From positions 2,480,001 to 2,544,000 of the forward strand of contig NC_083529.1 of NCBI RefSeq assembly GCF_032362555.1: 64,000 nt of DNA, given 5' to 3'. This document shows positions 16,801 through 31,996 of this stretch, piece after piece. The translations under genes and the position numbers were made by a program. A model generated the notes under the pieces. It was not told the origin of the DNA, did not search any database, and worked only from the letters and a program-made list of their open reading frames with translations. The stretch's first letter is position 1, and the number at the start of each line of letters is the position of its first letter. The DNA is from Amyelois transitella. Lineage: Eukaryota; Arthropoda; Insecta; Lepidoptera; Pyralidae.

Positions 16801-19800
16801 CGGGTATTCTTGATCTGAACTTTTGTCGGGATAATAAGTAATGTTTAGTTAATTATGTATTGTAATTTAATTAATGTTAAAACAAACAAGGCGCTTAAAG
16901 TCAAACAACGTTCTACAAAGTAAAAAAATCCTTGCTTATTATGTAAATGTTGGATTTTAATTTGTTATTCATAGCTTATGACAGAATTTTCAGCTAAACA
17001 ACAGGCCTTCATTTAATTAATTAGGTAACAACCGGACATAGAATTTAAAATAATTTTGCCGACAGCTTTGAGAGCCTTGCCTTAGGGCCTCCGAGACGAA
17101 AGTAAATTTAAATATTGTTTACAAATAAGGTACCTAATCAAAGCTGTATTGTCTATGAATTTTGACAATACAATTAATCCGGTATCGTTAATTTTCAATT
17201 AAATGACTACAATAACTTTTGCATTCTTAATTTGGTTTTGTGTAATTTTTTATTGTTTACCTCATTCCAAATGTACCTATATTTTAGTTACTTACTACGT
17301 AAGTATATATTTAGTTAGTTTTAGTTATAATTACATTTAAGTGATGTGACGTCAATATGTGATACATTGTAACCAATTTTGAAAATTTTCAACAGTCTTT
17401 GCAGTCCTAAGTGAAAGGAACCTATGGAAAAAAACGTTTAAAAATACGTAAACTATCATTTACACGAGATATATATGTCGGATAATGGGAGCATCTCTGT
17501 AGCATAAGTTTCATATGATCGTCGATAGATGGCGTAGCTAGATGGATTTTCCGCTAAGAAAACATTCAATGGCGTTTGTTAACTTATTATTTGTTATTGT
17601 GTTAAATTAAAGATTAATCAGTATTCAATAATTATGATAATTCATGATTTGATTTTTGATAGTAATTTCTGCATTGTTTACGTAATAGATAACGGTTGCT
17701 ATTTTTTAATGTACTGCGCCGGAAACGCAAGCGCGCTTGTTGCACCCAAACGCGTTTGGACATGACCCTCTCAGTCGTTGTTTAGAGCCGTGCCTTTACA
17801 CATCGATTTTGAGGAACTTGTCTGTGACCGGGCAGTGACTATTTTTCTTTATTTGACTGTGGGGTAGTTACGTTATTTTTTTTATTCGATTATTAAGTAC
17901 TTTTGTATCTCGGAATAAAACTGTTTAATAGTGAAAGTGTTTTTCGTTGCCTGATTACCCACTCAACGCCCACGAAATGAATAATGAGGAAACAAATGTT
18001 TACAATGAGCCTCCGAAGTCGCCTCCGGCCACCGTCGACGCGACATCAGAAGTGGGATACCTTCAGGCACGAAATAATTCCACGAGTTTACCCGGATTAG
18101 ACGAATCTCTTCTGCGTGTTCTTCTGGAGTCGCAGAACAGAAATATGATGAGCCTGATCGATGCAATAAAACCGTCTGCATCTGCTCAAAGGATTTCTCT
18201 GCCCGAATTCGACCCGGACAAGTCCGACAACGACCCTCGTGCATGGTGTGATACCGTTGACCTCTGCGTGGCTGATCGTGATCTATGTGGCAGTGCTTTG
18301 ATAATTATACTGAGTAAAGCGCTAAAAGGAAGTGCCTCACGATGGCTATCGCAAGTGTCTTATGCTGGGATAACTTGGCCGGAATTCAAGGACATTTTTA
18401 AGGCGAGATATGACTGTATCGAGACACCAGCAGCAACGCTGATTAATTTGCAAAATAGTCGCCCAAAGGAAGGTGAATGTTATGCCGCTTATGCTTCCCG
18501 GTTGATGACTTCGCTATCGTCACGTTGGCAAGGTATGAGCGCCGAGCAGATTGCAATTTCTACGATACTTGCTCATGTGTCTCGATTCGATGATAGATTG
18601 CAACGTCTTGCTTTTACTACCGAAATTACTTCGCGTGATAAACTCCAACGAGAGCTTCAGGCATTTTCGCATATGAAACGAAAGAGCAATACCGTGTCAT
18701 CGGCACTCGACGGGCCCAATGACAGCAAGCGCATGAAGCCTTTTTTGCCAAATACCTTCAAATGCAACTACTGTGGCAAACCTGGACACCGAGCTGCAGA
18801 CTGCCGTCAGCGACGCGATGTGAAGCGGACCACCAGCGGTCCTTCGGCAACGCCTTCAACTAGTACCGGACGAGAGAAGCAGGACCTGACATGCTTCAAA
18901 TGCGGTGGCAAGGGTCACTACGCATCAAGGTGTACTCAGCGAGCAACCAGCGGCGGCGGCCAGGGATCGTCGAGCAACGGTGCATCAACCAACGCGGCCA
19001 GCCAACGACGGGTGGATGTGTGCTTCGTGAGCAATCCACGTGGTCACTTAATGAATAATGGTGAGTCGTTTCCTTTTCACTATGACTCTGGGGCCGAATG
19101 TTCTCTCATCAAAGAATGTGTTGCTTCCAAGTTTACGGGAACACGATTTGATAATGTGATAACCCTCACGGGTATTGGGCAGTCTTCAATTCAAAGTTTA
19201 GTTCAAATTTTGGCTGAAGTTACAATAAATGCTATATCTATAGAGATACTTTTTCATGTTGTTCAAGACAGTTTTCTTAGGAGTAACATTTTATTTGGAA
19301 TGAAAATATTGGATCAAGTTACCATTCTTTTGAACTGGAGACTGGCGGTTGTCAATGCGATAAAGCACTTTCGCCATTACTTGCAAGGCCGTAAGTTCAC
19401 CGTAGTAACCGACTGTGCATCAGTTCGAGCGTCAAAAAGTAAGACTGATCTTTCTTCGCGAGTTCATAGGTGGTGGGTTTATCTCCAGTCATTTGACTTC
19501 GACATTGTACATCGAGCTGGAAGCCGCATGGGTCATGTGGATTTCCTATCCAGAAATCCTCTGCCGATTACGAATACTTCGCGTAAGATTGTTCGTAAGG
19601 TAAGAAGGGTAGATCTCGCTGCATTCTCAGACAACTGGTTAGTGGCTGAGCAGGAGAAGGATGAGGATATTTCTAAGATTGTTTCGGACTTGCATAATGA
19701 AGAAATGTCTGAAGATCTTAGAAAAACCTACGAGTTGCGCAAGAACGTCTTGCATCGAAAGATTCAGCGCAACGGTCGTACGAGATGTCTGCCTATGGTT

Positions 19801-22800
19801 CCGCGTTCACTATGCTGGTCAGTAATTAATAACATTCATGAGTCTGTCATGCATTTAGGTGCGGATAAAACCCTTGAGAAGGCCTACGAGCACTACTGGT
19901 TTCCCGGTATGTCCAAGTATGTGCGAAAATTTGTAGACAATTGCATAACATGTAAGATTTCTAAATCCAATAGCGGGAGGGTCCCAGCAGAGCTACATCC
20001 GATTCCCAAGGGCACGATTCCATGGCATACTGTTCACATAGATGCGTCTGGTAAGCTGAGTGGCAAAAATGATGTCAAAGAATATGTTTTTGTCATGATT
20101 GATGCTTTCACAAAGTATGTGCTTCTAATACACTCCAAAAACATCGATAGTACTAGTAGCATAAGGGCACTCAAGCAGGGCATTTCCTTGTTTGGGACCC
20201 CTAACAGAGTAATTTCCGATCAAGGTCGATGTTTTAGTAGTAAGGAGTTCTCAAATTTTTGTAGTAGTCATAACATAAACCTTCATTTGATTGCTACTGG
20301 TGGTTGTAGAGCAAACGGACAGGTCGAGCGCATCATGAGTACGCTAAAAGGTATGTTAACCTCTGTAGAGGTTAGTAAAGATCGCTCCTGGCAGGATGCT
20401 CTTGGTGATATTCAGTTGGCAATAAATTCGACTGTCAATCGTGTAACTAAAGCCAGTCCCTTAGAATTAATGATTGGGAAGGTTGCCCGACCGTTGAACT
20501 TAATGACTATTGATGAAGAGCCTATCGAAGTTGACTTAGATATGGTGAGAGAACAGGCGACCCAGGGCATAAAGGATAACGCTTCCTATGACAAGAAACG
20601 GTTCGACTCCAATAAGGCTAAGGTGCATAAGTTTTCTGTAGGAGACTTTGTGCTTCTTGAAAATGAGGAAAGGAACCAGACTAAGCTGGATCCTAAGTTC
20701 AAAGGTCCCTTTAAGATAATTGAAGTTTTAGATGGAGATAGATACCTACTGAAATCTCTGAACTCTAACAGAACCTATAAGTATCCCCATGATCGTGTTA
20801 GGAGGATATCAGACCATCAAGTTCCCAAAGAGCTAGATAATACCGATGAAAATGATTTTGTTGATGATGATGATTGTTAGTTTTTCTGATGATACATGTC
20901 ATGGTGCTGCTGATGGTACGGGTAACCGATGGACTGGATTACTCATGATTTAGATGGCCGATGGACCGAGCCATGTTAGTGTCCGATGGACTGGATACTA
21001 TGAGTGTTCGATGGACTGAACACTGATGATTTGACGAGACATGATAGTATCCGATGGACTGGGTACTGAGAGAGCCGATGGACTGGCTCGGAGCCGATGG
21101 ACTGGCTCAAGTATGCGTACCCAGACTTGTGTCATTGATTTTTCTTTTCATTACTGTAGATTAGTACCAATTGGAATATGGGAACTTGTCGGTCAGATGT
21201 TTTAAATTAATGATTTTGGTTTTGTAAACAAAAGCCCTTGAATTATTTCTGGTCGGGATAGCCGAACGGTTTACTCTTTGTGTTTCGTTTTGTTCTCAGA
21301 TGCAACACCCGAGGACGGGTGAAGACCATCAGGATGGCCGTGTCGGATAATGGGAGCATCTCTGTAGCATAAGTTTCATATGATCGTCGATAGATGGCGT
21401 AGCTAGATGGATTTTCCGCTAAGAAAACATTCAATGGCGTTTGTTAACTTATTATTTGTTATTGTGTTAAATTAACCCTTCGTAAGCTTTAGGCCGTATC
21501 CGGGCATGTACTAGGAATGCTTTGTTCCGGATCCGTCCAAATGCACTCGTCGTAGTTTTTACACAAATATAATATCTAATAACAAGAAATAAGGTGTTTT
21601 ATTATTTGAAATGTATTTCTAACGAATGAAGCCGTCATAGACAACTGTCAAATATGAATTTCATCCGTTCATTTAGCTAACCAAGTCATTTCAAATTGTG
21701 ACTTCGTTGTGTTGCAAAGTGACTGAAGAACGTGTGAGAAAACTCGTCTTTTTTGGCTGTAATTACAAACAGGTATGTAAATGTTTTTATTTCGTTATTA
21801 TATAGTTACTTTCGAAGCAATTACGTGTAAAAGTTTATAGATTTAGTAAAAAAAGAAGGATTTTAGCTTTTTCAAAAGTAGATGGGAGTGTGTTACATAT
21901 TTCTTTCGTGTTAGTTTATGCATTATATCCAATACCTCTGTAATGGATATAATTGGTTTTAGATAGTAAATTTATTATACTATTGAAATACACTAACTTT
22001 TTTACAATAAATACATGGATTTTGTAAATATCTTATATTTTTCAAGACTGAGAATCCGTTACACGCACACATACGCACTATGTCCGCCATCTTACTTGTG
22101 TCGTACACTGTCTGTGTATTGTATCGCGACGCTAATATACAGCATGCTTTCAAAAGCCTCTGTGATTTATTCATTGATTGAAACTAAATCTACGAAATTT
22201 ATTTTATTGGTTTTAGTCAAAATGTCGTTTGGTTTTGATGACATGATGTCATGATAGTTGGGAGATGGTATACAGGATCTACGCTCCGGTAACTCGTATC
22301 GCGCTGTGTTTTAGCTCGTTAGTTTTGTCTCCGTGAGCACTTTCTGATGAAGTGACATCGAGGGTCTGATGATGCAGTCGGAAGGTGGTATACAGGATCT
22401 ACGCTCCGGTAACTCGTATCGCGCTGTGTTTTAGCTCGTCAGTTTTGTCTCAGTGAGCACTTTCTGATGAAGTGACATCGAGGGTCTGATGATGCAGTCG
22501 GAAGGTGGTATACAGGATCTATGCTCCGGTAACTCGTATCGCGCTGTGTTTTAGCTCGTTAGTTTTGTCTCCGTGAGCACTTTCTGATGAAGTGACATCG
22601 AGGGTCTGATGATGCAGTCGGAAGGTGGTATACAGGATCTACGCTCCGGTAACTCGTATCGCGCTGTGTTTTAGCTCGTCAGTTTTGTCTCAGTGAGCAC
22701 TTTCTGATGAAGTGACATCGAGGGTCTGATGATGCAGTCGGAAGGTGGTATACAGTATACAGGATCTACGCTCCGGTAACTCGTATCGCGCTGTGTTTTA

Positions 22801-25800
22801 GCTCGTTAGTTTTGTCTCCGTGAGCACTTTCTGATGAAGTGACATCGAGGGTCTGATGATGCAGTCGGAAGGTGGTATACAGTATACAGGATCTATGCTC
22901 CGGTAACTCGTATCGCGCTGTGTTTTAGCTCGTTAGTTTTGTCTCCGTGAGCACTTTCTGATGAAGTGACATCGAGGGTCTGATGATGCAGTCGGAAGGT
23001 GGTATACAGGATCTACGCTCCGGTAACTCGTATCGCGCTGTGTTTTAGCTCGTTAGTTTTGTCTCCGTGAGCACTTTCTGATGACATCGATGTCTGGTTT
23101 GAATACATGCTAATAATTTTATTTTATTGACAGATTAAAATGGAACCCCAAACCCCAAGTACTTCCAGAAGCATGTTTGTCGGCTTGGAGGTGACTAGAA
23201 CTCCTCAGGGATCCCTTATTCGGGGCAGAGATGTAGTCTTGGAGACATCTGGATCAGGGAGGATTAGAGTATGTTATTTTCCAGTTTTGTTAACTTTCCC
23301 TTTTACTTTAAAAACAAAAACTGATTATTTCGTATATTTTATTACAGCCTTGGCGGCCCCAAAATTTATCTGTGGAAGGCGAAGCCATAGAGATCGTGGA
23401 TGAGTTGGTCCATGGCGGCGAAAAAGTAGCTGCTGTAAGAATGGTTTTCTTTTTTTTGATAACTTTAGTAGATGTTCAACTTTTTTTTAACTACCAAGAT
23501 AATAATATGTCGAGATGTATACTAACTTATTGCTCACTTATTGATGTCTATTGTAAGGATTATCGAAACAAAATATTACCTATTATCACAACATGCAATG
23601 TTATTTACAAAATAATTATTTTTTAGGTACCAGAGGAACGTACGAAAGGTCAGCCGCGTAATCTTTTTGGCCGAGAACCTGTAAGTTTCATTTTCATAAC
23701 ACTCTTTGAAAGTATAAATTACTTGCATTGAGAAAGGGATTTTTATTTATTGCCGCTCTCATCGTGCACCGGACTATCTGATAGAAATCTAGTCCATCCA
23801 GTAACTAAGGTAATGTAACTAAGGGTGTTTGGTTTGTGCTTCAATAACACAATTCTGCTAAAATTGGCAATGCGGTATGAATGTATTGTAACTTCATTGA
23901 TATAAAGGTGTTTGGTGTATGCTCAATAACGTAATTCAGCGAAATTGGCAATATGGCATGAATATATTGAAAGTTAATTGAATAAAAATGAACAGGAATC
24001 TCTATTCCTGTTCATCGTTGGGATACACTAATTATTCCTTTTTATAAAAATATTGTGGTTGGCATCTCTAACAATACCCGCTTTTGTTATGTTTGTGTGT
24101 ATGCTTGCATGTGGTTTAGGGTTTGGTTTTTTTAATAGGATGAAGACATACTGGATCCTGAGCTGGCTGAAGAATTAGCCATCGACTCTGGAAGTGATGA
24201 GGATGCCGAGGAAGAATTGACTCTCGATCAGTTACAGCAGATGTTGGAATCAGATGACGATTTTATTGAAGATGAAGTTAGTGAGGAGCCATTGACTTGG
24301 TCATCTGATTTTAACGAATTTAGAGGGGTCAGGGAGGACTTCAACGAAGAAGCTGGTCCTAAAATTGAGGGAACAAGTCCTTTAGGCTTGTTTACTCAAA
24401 TTTGGGACCAGCCTCTGATGGATTCTATTGTCCACGAAACGAATCATTACGCTTGGGAAACAATAACCGGTTTCTTTGAAACCGGAGACTCCATGCCAAG
24501 TAAATCTCGCATGAACGACTGGGTGGAAACTTCGGTTTCCGAACTATATAGGCTTATAGGTGTGATGATATTTATGTCAATATGTGTAAGAAGTAGGTTA
24601 GAGGAATATTGGATGACGGGTGTGATGGGTATGCCGGAGTTTCGAAAACTGATGTCAAGGGATCATTACGTAATGCTCTTAAAATTTTTGCACTTTACTG
24701 ATAACAACAACATACATGTACAGGGGCGTGATAAGAAAATAGCTAAAATAAAACCTATTATAGATTATTTAAATAAAAAATTCCAGTCCATTTACGTGCC
24801 TCACAGAGAAGTATCGATAGACGAATCGTTGCTGCTTTGGAAGGGTCATTTAAGCTGGAAACAATGCATTCGTTCCAAAGCAGCTCGATTCGGTATCAAA
24901 AGTTATGAACTCTGTGAGGCCGTAACTGGATACGTAGTAAATTTAATTTTGTATGCCGGCAAAGGCACGACAACTGCAGAAACGGTTTACGGGTTTACTA
25001 CATCCACTGCCAAAATAGTCCTTGAGCTTTTCAAGAACTATTTAGGCAAGGGATATACCCTGTTCATGGACAATTTTTATAATTCTGTTCCTCTGACCCA
25101 ATTTCTAAAAAAACATAAAACTGACGTAGTCGGTACTCTGAACCGTCGCCGAAAAGACACGCCCGTAGAAATCCAAAATTTGCAGGATAAAAGGATGGCT
25201 AGGGGTAGTGTGGTAAGTAGACACTGTGGTGATGTATCCGTCATAGCATGGAAAGATGTGAAGCTTGTCACCACTGTATCTACTTACCACAAAACAGATA
25301 TGGCTCCAGGGCACAGGGCTGGCCAACCCTGCTCCAAACCAGTCGTGGTCCATGAATATAATAAATACATGGGAGGCGTCGATCTCAAAGATCAAAAGCT
25401 AAGCATGTATTTATTAGAAAGAAAGAGGGGAATCAAATGGTATATTAAAGTTTTTAGACGTCTTTTAAATATATCTATTTTAAATGCATATATTATATAT
25501 TGTGCTAACATTGGCCAGCATAAAAAAATGACTCACCGCCAATTTCGTTTCAAGCTTGCTGAAGAGCTCTGCTTAGAATTCGGACAAAACGTCTCCTCAC
25601 GTTCGCGCCAGGTCCCCATCCCCACCTGTAGCAGGCTGAACAGGGATTTTAATCATTTCCCTGTTCATAATGAGGTGACCGAGGAGCGAACCAAAAAACA
25701 AGATAAATTTAAGAGGGGACGTTGTGTTAGATGCAGGCAAAAATGTAACATCGCGTGCAGTCATTGCACGGTGTATATTTGTGTTGGCCAATGTTGGCTT

Positions 25801-28800
25801 GAGTATCATACTTTAGAAAATCTATAGTTTGTAAATTACTTCTGTAGTTACATATATATAAAATATATAATTAAATATTATCTATTTATTTATATTAGTT
25901 ATATATTTATATAAAATGTGTGATGTAGTAGTCAACACACCAGACTGCTACTTCCAGGTCTCGGGTTCGATCCCCAGTCAGGTCAAGTTGGTAAATTATC
26001 TTTTTCATATTGACTTCTGATCTTGGGTGTTTATCTATTTATGTATACATTATTTTATTTTTAAATATTAATATTAGGATTATTGTTTAAAAATACTTTT
26101 TTCTCTTTGATCCCTTCTTTCTTAGGACTGCACTGGTTTGGTCTACGGGTTATAAGATACATAGAATGAATATACAAATAAAATAAAAAAAAAAAAAATT
26201 CAAAGCCCTTCAGGCGAGTAGGCGACCAATACTGTTGAAAAGAGTTTCTTTCGGCGTTTCTTCTCTTGCAGTGGTCGGTTACGAAGCGCTAGTAGTCTTT
26301 AGCTTTGAAAGAATTAATAATTTTAAATTTGAGTTTTGAATACATATCTATTTAATTTATCTAAATCGATAATTTTTACATGTAATTTGACGTAAAAAAG
26401 TGCCTACAAAGGCCTATTTTCTGAATAAACGTTTGAGTTTGGTTACAGTCGGCTTGAGCTCGATCGAACGCATGCGTGTTTTGAGTCCAAACATGCTTTG
26501 TTTAAAATTTAAGTTGACGTCATTTAGAGACACTGCTGCAGTGCAGTTTGGTGCCTATTCTTCTGTTATCCTATTCTTCACTTGCGCTTCTGAATTTGTG
26601 TAAACTTTTTTGCATATGAATATTCTGCAGACTGTTTAAATAACACCCTTTTAAAACGTTGTTGTTATCAGTAAAGTGAAATGATGGGAATCTAAAATTT
26701 CGATTCCTACGCAAAATTTTTTTGTTTAATTTGAATTCATAATTCATTAAAAATAAGTATTTTTTTTTACAAAACAACCGACTTCAACACTATTCCCTAT
26801 CTCAAAAATTACTGAACCGATTTTGATGAAAGTATTTTTTTTCAATAAGTCTTTATATATTACATAGTTCTTATCATTATAGATTTATTGAAAAAAAAAA
26901 CTTATCAAAAACAGTTCAGTAATTATTTTTACAAAATTGTAATTTTATTTTTATTTTTTCATTGGTAAAAATAATTCCTAGTATGTACTATGAATCATTG
27001 GTAAAAATAATTACTAGTATGTACTATGAATTGAATAGGTTTAGAGTAGTGGAAACCAATAAACATTGTACATTTTTGTATTCCAATAAAAGAAACATTT
27101 TAATCAACATTTTATTTTTATTTTTACAAGACACTCTTTTCCAAATTACTAACGTGCACAACTAAAAACAAACATCCTGTAGATATGCCCAGATCCGACC
27201 TAAAGCAGTTAGACAAACATTGACAGTGGACGGATACGGCCATCAGCAGTTAGGCGTTAACCACATGCCGCCATTTTGTCCAGATACGGCCATCAGCAGA
27301 CAAGCAAGGCAAACAAGTCACGCACACAGACATACATTTTTCTAGTTTTTGGCTATGGTTTTTCGCTCATTTTCTCTAGGCAAGCTATATATGTCTGATA
27401 TAAAAACGAAACTACAATTTTTCGTGTTTGCCACACTGCCCTTACAGTTGAGCAAAGACAAATGTAAGTGAATGAACGAGCCAATTGAAAAAATGATAGT
27501 TTTCTAGGTAAGTTTTCAGTTTTTAGTAGAAATATACTATTTTAAGACATTTAGATACATTTTACTTGTTGTTTTGTGAAGCCAAATACATTATTTACGA
27601 TTACAATGCCTCAAATAAATCTACATTTCAATATTTTCATGGTAATAGAAGTATAAAGTTTGCGTTGTAGAAGTTGCAAAATGGCGAAATCGTGATTCTT
27701 ACTGGATTATTTGTGAAGACGATTTTAGAGAATTTTACTTGGGACATAATAACTTTTTGGCACCATTAAATTCCTCAATTATTGGACTTTGTGGAATAGT
27801 AAACAAAAACAGAATATATGAAAGATGTAAATTGCAAAATCAGTAAAATATTTACAATGGATAATTTTTCGGTAAGTTTTGAATTCAGTGACCTAAATAT
27901 AATAAACGCAAGTGTTTTTTCGCATCAAAATTTATTGCATATGATTCTTCATTTATATATCTTTAAAAAAAAATAAATTTTTGGGTAGGTCCCAAATAAT
28001 TATATACAGATATACAACAAAATCTAAGACACTGCGCGCCCGTCCGCCGCGGCGCTTGAACGCCGCAGACGAGGTGCGCAGTTTGCGTATAGCCGCCGCA
28101 GCTGAAGGGTTAAAGATTAATCAGTATTCAATAATTATGATAATTCATGATTTGATTTTTGATAGTAATTTCTGCATTGTTTACGTAATAGATAACGGTT
28201 GCTATTTTTTAATGTACTGCGCCGGAAACGCAAGCGCGCTTGTTGCACCCAAACGCGTTTGGACATGACCCTCTCAGTCGTTGTTTAGAGCCGTGCCTTT
28301 ACACATCGATTTTGAGGAACTTGTCTGTGACCGGGCAGTGACTATTTTTCTTTATTTGACTGTGGGGTAGTTACGTTATTTTTTTTATTCGATTATTAAG
28401 TACTTTTGTATCTCGGAATAAAACTGTTTAATAGTGAAAGTGTTTTTCGTTGCCTGATTACCCACTCAACGCCCACGAAATGAATAATGAGGAAACAAAT
28501 GTTTACAATGAGCCTCCGAAGTCGCCTCCGGCCACCGTCGACGCGACATATATATATATAATCTGATCGCAATTGCGTCGTAAAGGGCTATAAAATAGGC
28601 AGGTAAATAAGGGTTGAAAGGGGTCGTGTTAAAGGATAGTTACGGGCCAACGGAGGTCAAACGAAATAGGTTAAAACATACGTACTTATATCACGTCTCT
28701 ATCCTTTATGAGGTAGACGGAGTCAAAAAGCTCCGAAGCCACATTCAACTGCATGACGATTCAATAATTAATAATTCAACAATGATGGAATTGGGATTCA

Positions 28801-31727: not shown

Positions 31728-31996
31728 CCCGAACGTAGCCTATAAGTCTTTTCAAGACTGTTGGCTCTGTCTACTCTGCAAGGGATAAAGACATGATTAT
31801 ATGTATTATACTATATGTGTGTATGATTATATGTATTATACTATATGTATGTATGATTATATGTATTATACTATATACCTATGTATGTATGATTATACGT
31901 ATTATACTATATGTAGGTATGTACATGTAATCATGTCTTTATCCCTTGCAGAGAAGACAGAGCCAACAGTCTTGAAAAGACTAATAGGCTACGTTC
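31728..31996. repeat. Tail-to-tail S1 pair joined by four ~31-bp tandem repeats
   Basis: A plus S1 3' end (31728-31800) and a minus S1 3' end (31928-31996) face each other. Between them TGATTATATGTATTATACTA is repeated four times (about 31795-31925), apparently an expansion of the S1 tail. Confidence 0.85.

What the first reader, a model, noticed from the sequence alone, without database searches (positions are those of the whole stretch)
20921..21108. Seven consecutive mini-hairpins with one fixed loop and covarying stems in a retrotransposon 3' region
Every copy keeps the loop GATGGACT (GATGGACC once), but the arms differ (AGTGTTC/GAACACT, TAGTGTCC/GGATACTA, AGTATCC/GGGTACT, GAGCC/GGCTC twice, ATGGC/GCCAT, GTAACC/GGATTAC). 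Pairing is preserved, including G-U pairs. Compensating arms beside an invariant loop imply selection on an RNA structure with a loop-specific ligand: for example packaging, localisation, translational control, or tethering of the RT-less element's RNA to a helper. I do not know a described system like this. An alternative is that a DNA-level palindrome-generating process created it.
Basis: seen in the sequence. Interest (0 to 1): 0.88.

Follow-up and report, generated by a model that had tools for sequence, protein, structure and literature searches.

The report
Covarying RNA hairpin arrays in retrotransposons
A mobile genetic element in this genome carries, just before its right-hand end, a row of small hairpins whose loop stays fixed while the stems change in matched pairs, and a good part of the related elements examined in the same genome carry their own different row of repeats there, which hints at a fast-evolving RNA recognition tag.

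Summary
Seven hairpins lie at 20922-21108, in the 3' untranslated region of a Ty3/gypsy element, between integrase stop and 3' LTR. The folded core is a hexaloop AUGGAC closed by G-U (G-C in copy 2); stems covary beyond controls. The seven two-LTR copies found in the genome all keep the array, with 6, 7 or 8 hairpins.

It is not unique. Of 62 integrase-downstream regions examined (148 integrase matches found), 35 have a tandem array there, in 17 different unit types. Fixed core plus compensating arms recurs, best supported in L050/L065 and L096; several other types gave no or weak support. The trait clusters on an integrase tree.

Best reading: a multivalent protein-binding element of the genomic RNA, most likely read by the element's own Gag; ligand and step are inferred. 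Rivals: host-factor export or stability element; palindromes made by reverse-transcriptase template switching. Strand tests were inconclusive. Family-specific 3' UTR tandem repeats are known in plants; I found no description of covarying hairpin arrays in ten searches of an open-licence library.

The parts
17476..18046 (+). 5' LTR, 571 bp, TGTCGG...GCGACA
   Evidence: self-comparison of the window, sequence, full-length matches elsewhere in the genome
17977..20880 (+). open reading frame whose first ATG lies inside the 5' LTR: two CCHC zinc knuckles, RNase H remnant, integrase; reverse transcriptase domain missing
   Evidence: ORF list (which starts it at TTG 17947), sequence, Pfam
20922..20942 (+). 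hairpin 1: GTAACC-GATGGACT-GG(A)TTAC, one bulged A
20954..20974 (+). hairpin 2: ATGGCC-GATGGACC-G(A)GCCAT, one bulged A, loop-closing pair G-C
20977..21000 (+). hairpin 3: TAGTGTCC-GATGGACT-GGATACTA
21003..21024 (+). hairpin 4: AGTGTTC-GATGGACT-GAACACT
21045..21068 (+). hairpin 5: TAGTATCC-GATGGACT-GGGTACTG
21072..21089 (+). hairpin 6: GAGCC-GATGGACT-GGCTC; 19-bp unit whose number varies between genomic copies
21091..21108 (+). hairpin 7: GAGCC-GATGGACT-GGCTC
21330..21340 (+). CAGGATGGCCG directly before the 3' LTR; CAGRAYGGCCG occurs downstream of integrase in 17 of the 62 regions examined
21341..21475 (+). 3' LTR, left part, 100% identical to 17476-17610
28110..28549 (+). 3' LTR, right part, 100% identical to 17607-18046; separated from the left part by an insertion with TTAA at both ends that holds a piggyBac-type transposase

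Best explanation
The array is a cis-acting structural element of the retrotransposon's genomic RNA. Each hairpin shows one protein a constant hexaloop (AUGGAC closed by G-U or G-C); stem sequence matters only in that it pairs. Several copies side by side give avidity. The array would let Gag pick its own full-length RNA for dimerisation or packaging, including RNA of deleted copies mobilised in trans. Shown: position, hairpins, covariation, change of unit number, presence in the seven two-LTR copies found, recurrence of arrays in other families. Inferred: selection on RNA, Gag as ligand, packaging as the step, mobilisation in trans.
For: Stem covariation above shuffled and slid controls in this family and in L050/L065, where RNAalifold by itself predicted the structure I had drawn and 6 of 10 pairs change on both sides; same pattern in L096 (15 of 15 cells paired, 80 of 5000 permutations as good) and by inspection in L069, L092, L072, L066. 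Free arms beside a constant core: pairs 2-6 vary, pair 1 does not. 7 of 7 two-LTR copies found keep the array although C16 and both C32 copies lack part of integrase and the window copy lacks RT. The most widely shared k-mer among the 17 unit types is no more shared than in shuffles, against one common reader. Two CCHC knuckles in the frame. No untranslated stretch lies between 5' LTR and gag. Published: Ty3 RNA localisation and packaging depended on UTR or POL sequences (PMC4974528, passages).
Against: No binding or functional data. Units were collected by searching for their core, so constancy of the core is partly built in; in the window array a one-mismatch search finds no other variant, in other families this was not checked. 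Strand tests inconclusive: 7 G-U against 4 A-C stem cells; the + strand folds better in 15 of 17 array regions but also in 9 of 12 regions without arrays. Unit folding energy is at about the shuffle mean in L061, L069, L075, L087, L088, and local folds of L053, L072, L075 and L087 partly pair neighbouring units instead of folding each unit. Arm tests were not significant in L087 and L090 and without power in L053, L083, L091, L088, L075. Single k-mers (GGAC in 7 units, TGGTCC and GGTCCT in 3) do exceed their own shuffles, though picked among many. 27 of 62 regions show no array, so gypsy elements can do without it.
Confidence: 0.4

Rival explanations
1. The array is an RNA element read by a host factor: a nuclear export, stability, localisation or translation element of the unspliced element RNA, working like the constitutive transport elements of simple retroviruses.
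For: Same kind of place, after the last coding frame and before the 3' LTR (place of the M-PMV element recalled). Simple retroviruses recruit NXF1/NXT1 through such RNA elements (PMC4829213, abstract and passages). Covariation fits any RNA-binding reader.
Against: Core sequences differ between families and the most shared k-mer is no more shared than in shuffles; one conserved host protein would be expected to hold one motif. Single k-mers such as GGAC (7 of 17 units, 2 of 300 shuffles as high) leave some room. No Rfam match over the array.
Confidence: 0.22
2. No selection on pairing: reverse-transcriptase template switching or slippage makes and expands short palindromes and copies one arm onto the other, so arms stay matched for mutational reasons.
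For: Unit number changes by exact 19-bp steps between copies. Tandem repeats in the 3' UTR of plant Ogre elements were hypothesised to come from illegitimate recombination or abnormal strand transfer (PMC7004042, passages). No strand preference shown. Cores were used to find the units, so slow loops are not independently proven.
Against: Arm-to-arm copying does not explain a loop that stays while arms diverge in the same units, nor the G-U pairs, nor that the only loop change is G-U to G-C. Arrays persist with different units within supported groups of families.
Confidence: 0.24
3. A DNA-level binding-site array (insulator or regulator), like the su(Hw) array of Drosophila gypsy, with the palindromic arms part of the DNA site.
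For: Tandem array in a gypsy UTR with several copies of a 10-bp core. Strand tests do not exclude a DNA level.
Against: Arm letters are free and only their pairing is kept, unlike a DNA site with fixed letters; location is 3', not 5' (5' UTR repeat of gypsy as insulator: PMC3286476, passage).
Confidence: 0.08
4. A reverse-transcription aid: structure that sets plus-strand priming or strand transfer near the polypurine tract.
For: The last hairpin ends 232 bp before the 3' LTR. Sireviruses have an inverted repeat around the polypurine tract for which such a role was proposed (PMC2829016, passages).
Against: Many units at a distance; the CAGRAYGGCCG motif before the LTR is also present in families without arrays such as L057 and L058.
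Confidence: 0.06

Closest known systems
Hypervariable 3' UTR tandem repeats of plant Tat/Ogre Ty3/gypsy elements (Macas 2009, known to me only through PMC7004042, passages)
   Same: Short tandem repeats between the pol region and the 3' LTR, different in sequence between elements, unit number unstable, also found in copies with deleted pol.
   Different: Discussed as satellite seeds, hypothesised to arise by abnormal recombination or strand transfer; the word hairpin does not occur in the paper's text. Here several unit types are hairpins with a constant core and compensating stems.
Packaging and dimerisation signals of retroviruses and of Ty1/Ty3
   Same: Structured genomic RNA read by Gag; Ty3 packaging depends on UTR or POL sequences (PMC4974528, passages).
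   Different: Retroviral signals lie mainly in the 5' leader (recalled); here a repeated array in the 3' UTR, ligand unknown.
Constitutive transport elements of simple retroviruses (M-PMV)
   Same: Structured RNA element in the 3' part of the genomic RNA (place and repeats recalled) acting in cis.
   Different: Read by host NXF1/NXT1 (PMC4829213, abstract and passages); here a different core in each family and no known ligand.
3' UTR stem-loops of LINE and SINE elements (PMC5135761, search listing only)
   Same: Stem-loop in a retrotransposon 3' UTR proposed as a self-recognition signal.
   Different: Non-LTR elements, recognition by the LINE reverse transcriptase; not an array of many hairpins as far as the listing shows.
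Sirevirus (Ty1/copia) palindromic repeated motifs and polypurine-tract inverted repeat (PMC2829016, passages)
   Same: Many palindromic boxes in non-coding parts of LTR elements.
   Different: Boxes lie in the LTR or near env, mostly with a CGG-CCG core, and are read as DNA motifs; here outside the LTR, constant loop and free stems.
gypsy insulator, su(Hw) site array (recalled; 5' UTR repeat as insulator in PMC3286476, passage)
   Same: Array of short repeats in a gypsy UTR.
   Different: 5' UTR, fixed DNA letters, no pairing arms (recalled).

Membership tests
Ty3/gypsy LTR retrotransposon | paired LTRs and Ty3-type order RT, RNase H, integrase after gag | tested here: met
   LTRs; zinc knuckle, RNase H, H2C2, rve in that order; RT sequence in the C32a and C2 copies; RT absent from the window copy
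Mag lineage of Ty3/gypsy | primer binding site for tRNA-Leu or tRNA-Ser (PMC3286476, passage) and place in an RT tree | not tested
   TCAGAAGTGGGAT follows the 5' LTR and resembles a tRNA-Leu end by recall only; no reference tree was built
Hypervariable 3' UTR tandem repeats as in plants | tandem repeats between pol and 3' LTR, different between families | tested here: met
   35 of 62 integrase-downstream regions, 17 unit types; 3' LTR bounds were determined only for the window family
Hypervariable 3' UTR tandem repeats as in plants | member of the plant Tat/Ogre lineage | not tested
   window looks animal by its piggyBac and RTE-type genes; lineage not tested by tree
Retroviral-type packaging signal | bound by Gag and needed for RNA encapsidation | not testable with these tools
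   no binding data
Retroviral-type packaging signal | location in the 5' leader | tested here: not met
   array lies at 20922-21108, after the integrase stop
Constitutive transport element | one conserved sequence that binds NXF1 | tested here: inconclusive
   binding not testable; most shared k-mer among 17 unit types no more shared than in shuffles, single k-mers such as GGAC above their own; no Rfam match over the array
Sirevirus palindromic motif | CGG-CCG core inside the LTR or near env | tested here: not met
   array is outside the LTR and lacks that core; definition
Any curated RNA family (Rfam 15) | match over the array | tested here: not met
   window 20600-21480 at E up to 5: two matches far below gathering score, neither over the hairpins

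The most novel reading that the evidence does not exclude
Gypsy families living in one genome mark their genomic RNAs with family-specific arrays of hairpins, a recognition code that each family's Gag reads to package its own RNA (and that of its deleted copies) and not that of its neighbours; the array is inherited while the loop code turns over as families split.
Probability: 0.24. Interest if true: 0.87.

Novelty: new variant of a known kind. Interest (0 to 1): 0.72.

Why it matters
[quoted passage not shown] If the reading is right, this genome holds many parallel runs of one experiment: a short core, freely changing stems and a matching set of Gag proteins. Swapping hairpins and nucleocapsid domains between families in binding tests would test RNA selection directly. 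It would also give a functional reason why tandem repeats sit in the 3' UTR of LTR elements, which the papers seen here treat as by-products, satellite seeds or possible regulators.

Tried and rejected
Coding repeat: rejected; loop spacings 32, 25, 25, 43, 24, 19 are not all multiples of three and the frame stops at 20880. Chance: rejected. Known RNA family: none over the array. Viral relatives: two CGATGGACTG cores within 36 nt occur in 31 viral loci; in 0 of 31 do two cores both have stems of 5 pairs; they look like repeats in coding sequence, not tested; no relative of the integrase was confirmed in viral contigs. Motif shared across families: not supported overall; 'ATGG' looked shared by eye but 139 of 300 shuffles reach its count. 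Strand asymmetry: inconclusive. Host tandem repeats as control: only one suitable array in the window (unit z +1.1), too few. m6A reading of GGACT in the loop: considered, not tested. Labels 'array' and 'none' were set by me from the TRF table, first 1600 bases per region: period 15 or more, about 2.8 copies or more, not A+T only, near the integrase; the window family (by its hairpins) and L096 (by eye) were counted as arrays although below that rule; L111 has a tandem array only beyond 1180 bases and was counted as none; L098, counted as none, folds well (z -4.5) and is a near sister of L088, so it may be mislabelled. In one search copies 1 and 2 had their bulged A taken out by hand; they were left out. 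The L075 anchor was badly placed and says nothing. One search stopped with an error before L092, so 16 of 17 unit types were scored. The alignments used wrong stretches or strands and are void. The odds of the best reading and the novel case were lowered by 0.02 and 0.01, and the mutational rival raised by 0.02, on rechecking, because units were found by their cores.

Full report
WHAT IS THERE. The seven hairpins exist as described. Five further exact GATGGACT sites in the window have no stem (0 of 5). Cognate arms pair much better than swapped arms (9 of 5040 permutations as low) or shuffled arms (mean -12.4, sd 4.8 against -60.5 kcal/mol). A scan of the window for repeated loops with differing arms finds this array and one A+T-rich repeat near 31800; 20 Markov windows gave none for 8-nt loops. 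Folding each unit alone gives a hexaloop AUGGAC closed by G-U; the single loop variant, copy 2, converts that pair to G-C. Copies 3 and 5 lie in a 38-nt direct repeat spaced 68 bp, and copies 6 and 7 are a 19-bp tandem unit.

THE ELEMENT. A 571-bp LTR lies at 17476-18046. Its second copy is cut in two, 21341-21475 and 28110-28549, both 100% identical to the 5' LTR, by an insertion that starts and ends at TTAA and holds a piggyBac-type transposase. The open frame runs from inside the 5' LTR to 20880 and has two zinc knuckles, an RNase H remnant and integrase; the reverse transcriptase domain is missing. The array is in the 3' untranslated region. The genome that holds the window has 327 Mb in 33 contigs; it is unnamed, and that it is a moth or butterfly is my guess.

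OTHER COPIES. A DNA search with the array finds 7 copies. Aligned in the right orientation, hairpins 1-5 are identical in 7 of 7, while the GAGCC units number one (two copies on C32), two (window) or three (C21, C16, C6, C2). One C2 unit reads GGGCC/GGCTC, an A to G change that keeps a G-U pair. Starting from the LTR instead, the same 7 two-LTR copies come up (26 matches from 22 scored candidates; the 5' LTR of C32a has an internal deletion), and all 7 carry the array; the other matches are solo or partial LTRs, and 3 of them, fetched, show no GATGGAC[TC] within about 600 bases. C21 is colinear with the RT-less window copy; C16 and both C32 copies lack about window 19481-20417. C32a still has RT sequence, and C2, 5710 bp from LTR to LTR, has a long open frame with RT, RNase H and integrase domains. 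Deletion derivatives of several kinds thus keep the array.

ARRAYS RECUR IN OTHER FAMILIES. An integrase protein search of the genome gives 148 matches, 100% to 27% identical, a lower bound in which some elements give two rows. By TRF and my reading, 35 of 62 have a tandem array after the integrase, in 17 unit types; 27 do not. Some units show a constant core with compensating arms: L096, core CAGACGTAGAGYTACGTGG, arms GGAC/GTCC, TTGAC/GTCAA, GTGAAC/GTTCAC, GTGATC/GATCAC; L069, outer arms GTGC/GCAC, ATATGC/GCATAT, ATTAATACAC/GTGTATTAAT; L092, loop YGCTGT, arms CAGG/CCTG, CGGG/CCCG, CAGC/GCTG; L072, loop ACAATGRGG, arms GCAGA/TCTGC, TCAGG/CCTGA, ACAGG/CCTGT. For L050/L065 (12 units, 10 distinct) RNAalifold alone predicts a two-helix structure with 6 of 10 pairs changed on both sides; 91% of cells pair against 82.8% shuffled (0 of 500 as high), slid registers 21-43%.

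STATISTICS, FOR AND AGAINST. Arm permutation tests: window family 46 of 48 cells paired, 2 of 5000 permutations as good; L096 15 of 15, 80 of 5000; L072 23 of 25, 294 of 5000; L069 (14 of 15) and L092 (12 of 12) with only three arm pairs each give 813 of 5000, about the floor of one in six; L087 (1256 of 5000) and L090 (1659 of 5000) are not significant; L053, L083, L091, L088 and L075 have no power. L050/L065, L066, L061, L079 and L093 were not in that test. Unit folding energy against dinucleotide shuffles is weak singly: 16 of 17 types scored, z from -2.2 to +0.7, with L061, L069, L075, L087 and L088 at about the shuffle mean. Local folds of L053, L072, L075 and L087 partly pair neighbouring units. 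Whole 3' regions: 17 with arrays have mean z -2.8, 12 without -0.96, Mann-Whitney p 0.002; repeats inflate such z values. Strand tests: 7 G-U against 4 A-C cells in stems; the + strand folds better in 15 of 17 array regions and in 9 of 12 others. Both are inconclusive. Units were gathered by their cores, so that cores look constant is partly built in; in the window array a one-mismatch search found no hidden variant.

PHYLOGENY. On an integrase tree of 32 rows (20 array, 12 none) the label needs 4 changes against 9.9 in shuffles (0 of 500 as low), and near copies help this; one origin or loss alone does not fit (0% of bootstrap trees). Window family, L050/L065 and L053/L055 form one supported group, L092/L095/L096 another, L072/L073/L075/L090/L091 a third. 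Within each group arrays stay and unit sequences differ. Against a simple story, L057 (none) lies beside L069 and L098 (none) beside L088. L050 and L053 share CCAGTAT or CAGTAT in the loop, by inspection. Among the 17 unit types the most shared 4-, 5- or 6-mer is no more shared than in shuffles (201, 172 and 282 of 300 as high); single k-mers (GGAC 2 of 300, TGGTCC and GGTCCT 0 of 300) exceed their own shuffles but were picked among many.

HOW IT PROBABLY WORKS. Free stems that must pair and a constant loop are what a protein-bound hairpin looks like; repetition suggests avidity. With gag starting inside the LTR there is no untranslated stretch between LTR and gag to hold such a signal (inference; the transcription start is unknown). 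The main non-functional rival is arm-to-arm copying by reverse transcriptase, which would make matched arms without selection but does not by itself explain slow loops.

WHAT IS KNOWN. Tandem repeats that differ between elements in the 3' UTR are known from plant Tat/Ogre elements and were hypothesised to come from illegitimate recombination or abnormal strand transfer (PMC7004042, passages; Macas 2009 known only through it). PMC3286476 (passages) says repeats in LTR elements usually lie in the 5' or 3' UTR and describes mosquito elements with tandem repeats. Sireviruses have palindromic boxes and an inverted repeat at the polypurine tract (PMC2829016, passages). Ty3 RNA localisation and packaging depended on UTR or POL sequences (PMC4974528, passages). 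M-PMV type export elements recruit NXF1/NXT1 (PMC4829213, abstract and passages). A 3' UTR stem-loop is proposed for human L1 and Alu (PMC5135761, listing only). In ten literature searches I saw no description of same-loop, covarying hairpin arrays in LTR elements; only an open-licence library was searched, and listings were read as titles and abstract starts.

Noticed in passing
window 21472-28113: A piggyBac-type element with TTAA at both ends (transposase 24217-25827, inner tandem repeats of about 120 bp at 22251-23084) has inserted into the 3' LTR of the gypsy element.
   Followed up: partly
window 17977-18062: The gag frame starts inside the 5' LTR and runs across the presumed primer binding site; TCAGAAGTGGGAT after the LTR resembles a tRNA-Leu end (recalled).
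   Followed up: no
window 21330-21340; 17 of 62 integrase-downstream regions: A CAGRAYGGCCG motif stands directly before the 3' LTR here and occurs downstream of integrase in 17 of 62 regions, with and without arrays; LTR bounds of the others were not determined.
   Followed up: partly
L050 2545-2902, L065 2576-2834: Two-helix repeat units with six of ten pairs compensated, predicted by RNAalifold on its own.
   Followed up: yes
L082, L083, L103: Nearly identical 42-bp units with about 3, 9 and 11 copies: recent array growth or loss.
   Followed up: no
L098: Labelled without array but its 3' region folds far better than shuffles (z -4.5); near sister of L088, may hold a diverged array.
   Followed up: no
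G000 contig C32: By my count about 47 of the 148 rows lie on C32, several of them broken; perhaps a degenerate sex chromosome (guess).
   Followed up: no
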